Positions 49,781 through 51,891 of a DNA stretch of 64,000 bases are shown here, piece after piece; position 1 is the first letter of the stretch, and each line of letters starts with the position of its first letter. The notes beneath the pieces are model-generated. The model was not told where the DNA came from and made no database searches. It saw only the letters and a program-made list of their open reading frames with translations. The DNA comes from Alcaligenaceae bacterium CGII-47 (GTDB lineage Bacteria > Pseudomonadota > Gammaproteobacteria > Burkholderiales > Burkholderiaceae_B). A program made the position numbers and the translations under genes. The DNA is taken from assembly GCA_019166125.1 (NCBI GenBank), contig JAHTBO010000005.1, positions 114,175 to 178,174 on the forward strand, read 5' to 3'.

Positions 49781-51891
49781 ACAATTTTCTGGCCTTGCTT
49801 AAGTTAAACGGCTCTGCCCACGCGCGCCTGATGGCTGGGCCTGTGCTGATCCTCATGGTCCTGGCCATGATGATCCTGCCGCTACCGCCCTTTGTCCTCG
49901 ATCTGCTCTTTACCTTCAACATTGCCTTGTCGGTGATGATTTTGCTGGTGGCGATGTTTACCCGCAAGCCTCTGGATTTCGCCGCATTTCCGTCGGTGCT
50001 CTTATTTGCCACCTTGCTGCGCCTATCGTTGAACGTGGCGTCGACCCGGGTCGTATTGATGAATGGCCACAAGGGGCCTAACGCGGCGGGGCAGGTAATC
50101 GAGGCGTTCAGTCATTTCCTGGTTGGCGGGAATTTTGCGGTCGGGATTGTGGTCTTTGTGATCCTGGTTATCATCAACTTTGTGGTGATCACCAAGGGTG
50201 CGGGCCGCATCGCCGAGGTCGGGGCGCGCTTCACCCTGGATGCGATGCCTGGCAAACAGATGGCCATCGACGCTGACCTGAATGCCGGCCTGATTGGCGA
50301 GGACGAGGCACGTAGTCGTCGCGCCGAGGTCTCTTAAGAGGCGGAGTTCTACGGCGCCATGGATGGGGCGAGCAAATTCGTGCGCGGGGACGCGGTGGCG
50401 GGTTTGCTTATCATGGTGATCAATATTCTGGGTGGTCTCATTGTTGGGGTGGCCCAGCATGATCTGGCAGTTAGCGAGGCGGGGCACATCTACACCCTGC
50501 TCACGATTGGTGATGGGCTGGTCGCGCAGATCCCGGCTTTGGTGATTTCCACCGCGGCGGGGGTGGTGGTCTCGCGCGTTGCGACGGATCAGGACGTTGG
50601 CCAGCAGATAATGAGCCAACTGTTCTCCAATCCCAATGTGCTATTTATCACGGCTGGTATTCTGACCCTGATGGGCTTGATCCCCAATATGCCGCATTTG
50701 GCATTCCTGACGTTCGCGGCAATCCTCGGTGCATCGGGATGGGGTCTGTATAAACGTCAGCAGCTCGATCTGGCGACTAAGGCCGAAGCGCCCGTACGTG
50801 AGCAGGCGGCGGTCGCGGCCGCTGCGGCGGAGGCGAGTTGGGATGATGTCTCGCTCGTTGATCCGCTCGGCCTAGAGGTGGGCTACCGTTTGATTTCCTT
50901 GGTCGACCATGAGCAGAATGGCGAGTTGCTGCATCGGATCCGTAGCCTGCGCAAGAAATTTGCCCAAGAGATGGGGTTCTTGCCACCGGTGGTGCATATT
51001 CGGGACAACCTGGAACTCAAGCCCACGGATTACCGGATATTGCTCTATGGCGTAGAGGTCGGCCGCGGCGTTGCGCTGCCCGGTCAATGGCTGGCGATCG
51101 ATCCCGGCGAGGTCACGATGCAATTACCAGGGACGCCGACGACCGACCCGGCCTTTGGCTTGCCTGCTGTGTGGATTGACGTGGCGATGCGCGAGCAGGC
51201 GCAAATTGCAGGGTATACCGTTGTGGATGCCGCAACGGTGGCTGCGACGCATCTGAATCACCTCATGCACCGCCATGCGGCCAAACTCCTTGGGCGCCAA
51301 GAGACCCAGCAATTGCTCGATCATATTGGGCGCGATATGCCCAAACTCATCGAGGATTTGGTCCCCAAGACGCTCAGCCTCACCGCCCTGCAGAATTTGC
51401 TACGTGGCCTGCTTGATGAAGAAGTGCCGATTCGTGATGTGCGCAGCATTATCGAGACGATCGCCGATCATGCGCCCCGTCTGGCCGCCCTCAACCCGGC
51501 GGGCAGTGGGCCGGATATGACGGAATTGCTGGCACAGGTACGGGCGAGCCTGGGTCGGGCGATTACGCAGCATTGGTTCCCGGGCGAGGATGAGCTGCGC
51601 GTCATCGGTCTGGACGCACGCCTAGAGCGCGTACTGACACAAGCCATGACCAGTAGCGGTGCGTTAGAGCCTGGGCTCGCCGACACATTACTCGCGGATA
51701 CGTTACGTGTCGTCCAAGAGCAAGAGAATAGCGGCGAGGCGCCCGTGCTGGTCGTGCCGCCCGCCTTACGCCCATCATTATCACGGTTTCTCAGGCATCA
51801 TATTCCTCAAATGGGTGTGCTCTCTAGCGTCGAGATTCCTGAAGAGCGTATGATGCGCATCACATCGATTATTGGCGGGAGTCCTGCGTGA
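49777..51891 (+). pseudogene. flhA: flhA interrupted by an in-frame TAA at codon 187
   Basis: The full frame (704 codons) encodes flagellar export gate protein FlhA but has an ochre stop at 50335-50337. The 5' piece (49777-50337, 186 residues) carries the first four membrane helices and the start of the FHIPEP loop, ending EDEARSRRAEVS. The 3' piece continues in the same frame; its first ATG is 50359 (510 residues, to 51891) and begins MDGASKFVRGDA. Between them the frame reads E-A-E-F-Y-G-A. In homologues the order is EV(S/T)Q-EA-(D/E)FYG-x-MDGASKF, so the stop replaces a conserved Gln; CAA to TAA is a single C-to-T change. GAGG and GGAG sequences follow the stop, so reinitiation at 50359 is conceivable. 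A sequencing error is also possible. Confidence 0.88.

What the first reader, a model, noticed from the sequence alone, without database searches (positions are those of the whole stretch)
50335..50337. In-frame ochre stop splits flhA in the FHIPEP loop
The whole FlhA frame is intact apart from one TAA at codon 187. Protein sequence on both sides matches FlhA without any gap or shift. The stop sits where homologues have Gln, so CAA to TAA (one C-to-T change) explains it. All other flagellar genes visible in the window look intact. The truncation falls in the cytoplasmic loop between helices 4 and 5, and a GAGGCGGAG stretch lies 12-21 bases before an in-frame ATG at 50359. Possibilities: a recent loss of motility, a revertible or suppressed mutation, reinitiation giving a split FlhA, or a sequencing error.
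Basis: partly seen in the sequence, partly recalled or inferred. Interest (0 to 1): 0.75.

Follow-up and report, generated by a model that had tools for sequence, protein, structure and literature searches.

The report
Nonsense codon interrupting flagellar gene flhA
A bacterium of the Castellaniella group has a single in-frame stop codon in an otherwise intact flagellar export gene, most likely a recent, ordinary loss of flagella in this strain or a sequencing error rather than a new mechanism.

Summary
ORF 49777-51891 is flhA, open except for TAA at 50335-50337 (codon 187), in the loop between membrane helices 4 and 5. It is the only FHIPEP-family match in the draft genome. All 73 distinct homologues aligned have Gln there. 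No listed family match in 162 other genomes has an in-frame stop. In the contig comparison I found no other flagellar or chemotaxis gene interrupted in its true frame. The 517 codons after the stop look constrained: 1 of 202 family-invariant residues changed, and the C-to-N divergence ratio is like that among intact relatives. So the change is recent, not in the cell (an error), or bypassed. None of 43 tRNA genes has a stop-reading anticodon. The GAGGCGGAG before ATG 50359 is coding sequence and only moderately unusual: 19 of 185 internal in-frame ATGs, itself included, do as well. Best reading: a recent nonsense mutation that abolishes FlhA function in this strain, a known kind of event (flhA Gln-to-stop in two Vibrio species). 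An assembly error cannot be excluded without reads. A working split or read-through FlhA is unlikely, though Brucella melitensis 16M is a published case of a stop in flhA in a strain reported to build a flagellum.

The parts
48617..49780 (+). flhB, open frame; its stop overlaps the flhA start
   Evidence: TIGR00328 408.5 bits, over cut-off; ORF list
49777..50334 (+). flhA codons 1-186: N-terminal membrane part and most of the FHIPEP loop
   Evidence: TIGR01398 294.2 bits; hydropathy
50335..50337 (+). in-frame TAA, codon 187 of flhA
50338..50346 (+). SD-like GAGGCGGAG, part of the FlhA coding sequence
50359..51891 (+). flhA codons 195-704 and stop: rest of the membrane part and the cytoplasmic domain; open from ATG 50359
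   Evidence: TIGR01398 546.3 bits; solved FlhA chains matched
51888..54242 (+). flhF, open frame; start overlaps the flhA stop
   Evidence: TIGR03499 218 bits, over cut-off

Best explanation
This is the only flhA gene found in a genome of the Castellaniella group, interrupted by one nonsense codon at codon 187 in the cytoplasmic loop between helices 4 and 5. Translation ends there and gives a 186-residue membrane fragment without helices 5-8 and without the cytoplasmic domain that docks substrates and the export ATPase. The flagellar export gate then should not work, and the strain should lack hooks and filaments and not swim, although the other flagellar genes remain. Shown: the stop, that it is the only one in the gene, the single copy in the draft, the open frames of the other flagellar genes compared, and the unrelaxed sequence after it, which makes the change recent on the species time scale if it abolishes function. 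Inferred: that the base is real, that neither reinitiation nor read-through rescues function, and that the cells are aflagellate.
For: Single in-frame TAA in the sole FHIPEP match. Gln at this position in 73 of 73 distinct homologues. No in-frame stop in the listed family matches of 162 other genomes. No stop-reading tRNA among 43. Residues reported as important for FlhA function fall on both sides of the break: own R144, R151, D155 before and D205 after, at R147, R154, D158 and D208 of a solved full-length FlhA chain (roles from passages of PMC7911332). Nonsense mutations at Gln codons of flhA are in print: Q533* in a motility-defective Vibrio cholerae isolate (PMC10654082, passages) and Q295* in V. 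alginolyticus YM19, presumed by the authors to cause its polar-flagellar defect (PMC10956519, passages). A spontaneous flhA frameshift in Pseudoalteromonas lipolytica abolished swimming (PMC8919034, passages). Constraint after the stop is unrelaxed.
Against: No reads, no second isolate and no phenotype were available. No other gene of the regulon was found damaged, as expected for a recent loss but equally for an error or a still working system. A passable SD ends 12 bases before an in-frame ATG that lies 21 bases after the stop. B. melitensis 16M has a premature stop in flhA and is reported to build a flagellum (PMC7410920). PMC8919034 calls spontaneous flhA mutations rarely found in other species. 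In-frame stops in this family were not seen in 162 other genomes, so the event is uncommon among the genomes sampled.
Confidence: 0.62

Rival explanations
1. Sequencing or assembly error: the living strain has an intact flhA.
For: No in-frame stop in listed family matches of 162 other genomes; Gln in 73 of 73 homologues; the coding sequence after the stop is under normal constraint; the draft is in 41 contigs and has two ambiguous bases just outside the window on the same contig.
Against: I found no other interruption of a true frame in the contig comparison (405 ORFs of relatives given, 129 matched, 51 stretches, 53,226 bases), though stops in shadow ORFs were set aside by position. The ABC-transporter domains listed for this genome (46 by my count, of 126 found) have no stops. 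So the error rate looks low. There is no ambiguous base in the window.
Confidence: 0.25
2. Split FlhA by reinitiation: ribosomes ending at TAA restart at ATG 50359, 21 bases on, and the two fragments (186 and 510 residues) assemble into a working or partly working export gate, so the stop is tolerated.
For: SD-like stretch with computed anti-SD pairing of -7.5 kcal/mol, within the range of 18 gene starts in the window (-9.8 to +1.4). The overlapping flhB-flhA-flhF junctions suggest that ribosomes reinitiate in this operon (inference). The break lies in a loop. Purifying selection after the stop is unrelaxed. B. melitensis 16M is a published case of flagellum formation despite a stop in flhA (PMC7410920).
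Against: The SD and Met belong to FlhA coding sequence; 19 of 185 internal in-frame ATGs, this one included, have as good an SD. The loop itself is reported to be functional (PMC7911332, passages), and residues 188-194 would be missing. A recent mutation explains the unrelaxed sequence as well. I know of no demonstration that FlhA works when cut in this loop (listings, plus recall).
Confidence: 0.08
3. Low-level read-through of the ochre codon by near-cognate tRNAs gives enough full-length FlhA for some flagella.
For: FlhA is needed in few copies per basal body (nonameric ring, PMC7911332, passages); the frame after the stop is intact.
Against: TAA is generally the least leaky stop (recalled); no suppressor tRNA among 43; nothing suggests that the genome reassigns TAA, since 4 of 18 window ORFs examined end in it.
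Confidence: 0.05

Closest known systems
Vibrio cholerae flhA Q533* and V. alginolyticus YM19 flhA Q295* (PMC10654082, PMC10956519; passages)
   Same: One substitution turns a Gln codon of flhA into a stop, in strains with a motility or polar-flagellar defect
   Different: Amber instead of ochre, at other positions, with a known parent strain; YM19 carries further variants; here neither parent nor phenotype is known
Brucella melitensis 16M flhA (BMEII0166-67) with a premature stop (PMC7410920; passages and first part of the Discussion)
   Same: A single-base change gives a premature stop and two annotated ORFs in flhA of a bacterium that keeps its flagellar genes
   Different: Several other flagellar genes are damaged there and a sheathed flagellum is nevertheless reported; here no other damage was found and no phenotype is known; position of the stop there not looked at
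Pseudoalteromonas lipolytica spontaneous flhA frameshift (PMC8919034; passages)
   Same: Spontaneous flhA null in an environmental bacterium, giving a non-motile variant
   Different: One-base insertion in a biofilm variant, tested genetically

Membership tests
FlhA (TIGR01398 / PF00771) | full-length match to the FlhA family and position next to flhB and flhF | tested here: met
   883.5 bits over PF00771 positions 1-655 of 657, stop read through by the tool; the separate pieces match TIGR01398 best, each alone below its cut-off of 772.1 bits; flhB and flhF adjoin
Recent nonsense pseudogene | one stop where relatives have a sense codon | tested here: met
Recent nonsense pseudogene | little or no further decay after the stop | tested here: met
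   no second stop or shift; 1 of 202 invariant positions changed; divergence ratio C/N 1.4-3.0 in 8 comparisons versus 1.8-3.7 in 6 comparisons among 4 intact relatives
Recent nonsense pseudogene | no functional product, aflagellate cells | not testable with these tools
   no strain or phenotype record at hand
Stop-codon suppression / recoding | a tRNA reading TAA, or TAA used inside other genes | tested here: not met
   43 tRNAs, none with TTA, CTA or TCA anticodon; no other in-frame stop found in the true frames compared on the contig. Near-cognate read-through is not tested by this
Split gene by reinitiation | restart codon with SD shortly after the stop, beyond chance | tested here: inconclusive
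   ATG 21 bases after the stop with -7.5 kcal/mol SD; 19 of 185 internal ATGs, itself included, as good; sequence also serves coding

The most novel reading that the evidence does not exclude
The stop is real and tolerated: FlhA is made as two chains, 1-186 and 195-704, cut in the FHIPEP loop, that together form a working export gate, so that the loop need not be continuous between helices 4 and 5.
Probability: 0.06. Interest if true: 0.65.

Novelty: new member of a known kind. Interest (0 to 1): 0.2.

Why it matters
As a loss-of-function mutation it says only that this sequenced strain probably does not swim, and that annotation of its flagellar system as complete would be wrong. If the gene were shown to work in two pieces, it would be a natural test of whether the loop between helices 4 and 5, proposed to couple proton flow to movement of the cytoplasmic ring, must be one continuous chain.

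Tried and rejected
A second flhA copy was sought and not found (one match). A suppressor tRNA was sought and not found. Decay elsewhere in the regulon was sought by tblastn of relatives' ORFs. The many stops reported I took to lie in antisense or shadow ORFs of the more G+C-rich relatives, or upstream of true starts or at natural ends; I judged this by strand, position and the number of stops, and looked at two alignments only (FliD and FliH). Apparent breaks of flhA in two relatives (G021:C18 and G030:C48) have runs of N at the break (31 and 2 bases) and were dropped as assembly gaps. G178 shows the gene in two adjoining frames; not followed. Literature on natural split FlhA: the listings held nothing that I recognised as such from titles; of those lists only PMC7911332 was opened (passages). 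Motility data for the species of this window were not found (listings; passages of PMC13055238). C. ginsengisoli genomes are smaller (2.88-3.03 Mb) and richer in G+C (65.9-66.4%) than this one, so the window is unlikely to be that species. No structure prediction was run, as it could not decide between the readings.

Full report
What is there. The frame that starts at ATG 49777 reads FlhA to codon 186, meets TAA at 50335-50337, and goes on open to the TGA at 51889-51891. A profile search of the whole draft genome (3,447,753 bases, 41 contigs) found one FHIPEP match, over model positions 1-655 of 657, with one TAA inside. The two pieces, searched apart, match TIGR01398 FlhA at profile positions 5-170 and 180-678. 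flhB lies before it with overlapping stop and start, flhF after it in the same way.

Is it unusual? Of the 101 genomes in the first relatives search 80 have the family, and among the listed matches only the own one has a stop in its frame. In a sample of 160 genomes of the order 114 have it, and again only the own match has a stop. Thirty of the other genomes are common to both, so 162 distinct other genomes were seen without an in-frame stop. The family includes type III secretion relatives, and some matches are fragments at contig ends (for example G059) or broken by runs of N (G021, G030); one genome (G178) has the gene in two adjoining frames. In an alignment of 73 distinct homologues (from 114 sequences extracted; duplicates, proteins under 690 residues and C parts under 70% identity left out), the residue at codon 187 is Gln in 73 of 73, by the commoner codon in 66 and the other in 7; of eight same-genus genomes (G001-G007, G009) seven have the commoner and one the other. 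A one-step origin of an ochre codon therefore needs the less common Gln codon in the ancestor; this gene uses that codon for 11 of 27 Gln, and the sequence is poorer in G+C (56.9% in the window; 55.3% in other own stretches sampled) than the seven relatives' loci measured (60-70%), so that is plausible. Intact copies exist in these eight same-genus genomes.

Is the rest of the flagellar system intact? ORFs of four same-genus genomes were compared with the window and its flanks and with contig C35 98000-241193. In one search, 405 ORFs were given and 129 matched at 50% identity or more, over 51 stretches covering 53,226 bases. Many of these are antisense or shadow ORFs, and their stops were set aside by strand and position, not tested one by one. 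The only true frame that I found interrupted is flhA, hit by full-length FlhA of G001, G002 and G006 and of G002 and G006 (for G001 a shadow ORF was picked there). The open frame of G005 runs on far upstream of its flhA: it was cut by a stretch end and came as a 1043-residue ORF, with 15 stops in the extension and one at alignment position 527, which by my reckoning is the same stop. Curated models name 20 open frames tested: flhD, flhC, motA, motB, cheA, flhF, flgE, flgI, fliE and fliS and fliR, fliP, fliM, fliL, fliI, fliH, fliG, fliF, fliD and fliC. Eighteen of 20 pass the cut-off of at least one matching model; FliL and FliD do not. Genes such as fliK, fliJ, fliN, fliO and fliQ were not scanned with these models. 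FliP was also found without a stop by its Pfam family, and the flagellin domain twice without a stop. Of the 126 ABC-transporter domains found in the genome, those listed (46 by my count) have no stops. So there is no sign of general decay or of many errors.

Is the part after the stop decaying? No sign of it. Of the positions invariant in the other 73 aligned proteins, this FlhA departs at 1 of 110 before the stop and 1 of 202 after it; 10 of the other 73 depart at more positions after the stop. Non-synonymous divergence after the stop relative to before it is 1.4-3.0 for this gene against eight same-genus relatives, and 1.8-3.7 in the six comparisons among four intact relatives that were printed. 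Synonymous differences are near saturation (0.55-0.71 for this gene), so a rate per synonymous change was not used. Amino acids unique among nine same-genus sequences number 12 after the stop here, the second highest, against 0 to 15 in the others. So the stop is young on the time scale that separates these species, or is not in the cell, or does no harm. The data cannot separate these three.

Could the cell get round it? Rfam found 43 tRNA genes; ARAGORN named them in the fetched loci, none with TTA, CTA or TCA anticodon. The tRNA with anticodon TAA reads leucine UUA codons, not UAA. The first in-frame start after the stop is ATG 50359. Its computed pairing with the 16S end (-7.5 kcal/mol) lies in the range of 18 gene starts in the window (-9.8 to +1.4), but 19 of 185 internal in-frame ATGs in the same genes, this one included, and 238 of 3448 sampled positions are as good. 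The nine bases encode Glu-Ala-Glu; 3 of 73 relatives have the same nine bases after an intact Gln codon, and Met follows in 73 of 73. Termination-reinitiation is known in bacteria (PMC6728339, passages), so some C-terminal fragment may be made. Whether a gate of two chains works is unknown. Residues discussed as important lie on both sides: R144, R151 and D155 before, D205 after, by alignment to a solved full-length FlhA, corresponding to R147, R154, D158 and D208 in PMC7911332 (passages). That review places the conserved loop between helices 4 and 5 and has it interact with the cytoplasmic domain. The hydropathy plot puts the stop between hydrophobic stretches 110-146 and 204-230; it did not resolve helix 3, so the helix numbers rest on the review.

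What is known. Nonsense changes at Gln codons of flhA are recorded in a motility-defective V. cholerae isolate (Q533*, PMC10654082, passages) and in polar-flagella-deficient V. alginolyticus YM19 (Q295*, presumed causal, PMC10956519, passages). A one-base insertion in flhA made Pseudoalteromonas lipolytica non-motile; its authors call spontaneous flhA mutations rare elsewhere (PMC8919034, passages). Against a simple equation of stop with loss stands B. melitensis 16M: PMC7410920 (passages, first part of the Discussion) lists a premature stop in its flhA and yet cites a sheathed flagellum, and its authors suggest that either the altered proteins work or some full-length product is made. I did not look at that sequence.

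Verdict. A correct observation of an ordinary kind: a recent nonsense mutation in flhA (0.62), or a base error in a draft assembly (0.25); reinitiation (0.08) and read-through (0.05) remain as minor possibilities. Reads and a motility test would settle it.

Noticed in passing
contig C35 114159 and 114174, just left of window position 1 (L183 16160 and 16175): Two single ambiguous bases (N) 15 bases apart in the own assembly, immediately outside the window.
   Followed up: partly
window 1-64000: The window has 56.9% G+C against 60-70% in seven relatives' loci measured; shadow ORFs of the relatives meet stops here.
   Followed up: no
L188 16221-18431 (-): The flagellin gene encodes 736 residues, which seems long; the flagellin models match in two stretches.
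   Followed up: no
L123 2409-2439 and L124 2183-2184: Apparent breaks of flhA in two relatives coincide with runs of N and are likely assembly gaps.
   Followed up: yes
G178 contig C4 224206-226157: A genome of the same order has its FHIPEP gene in two adjoining frames (model 1-353 and 358-656), so a frameshift or an error.
   Followed up: no
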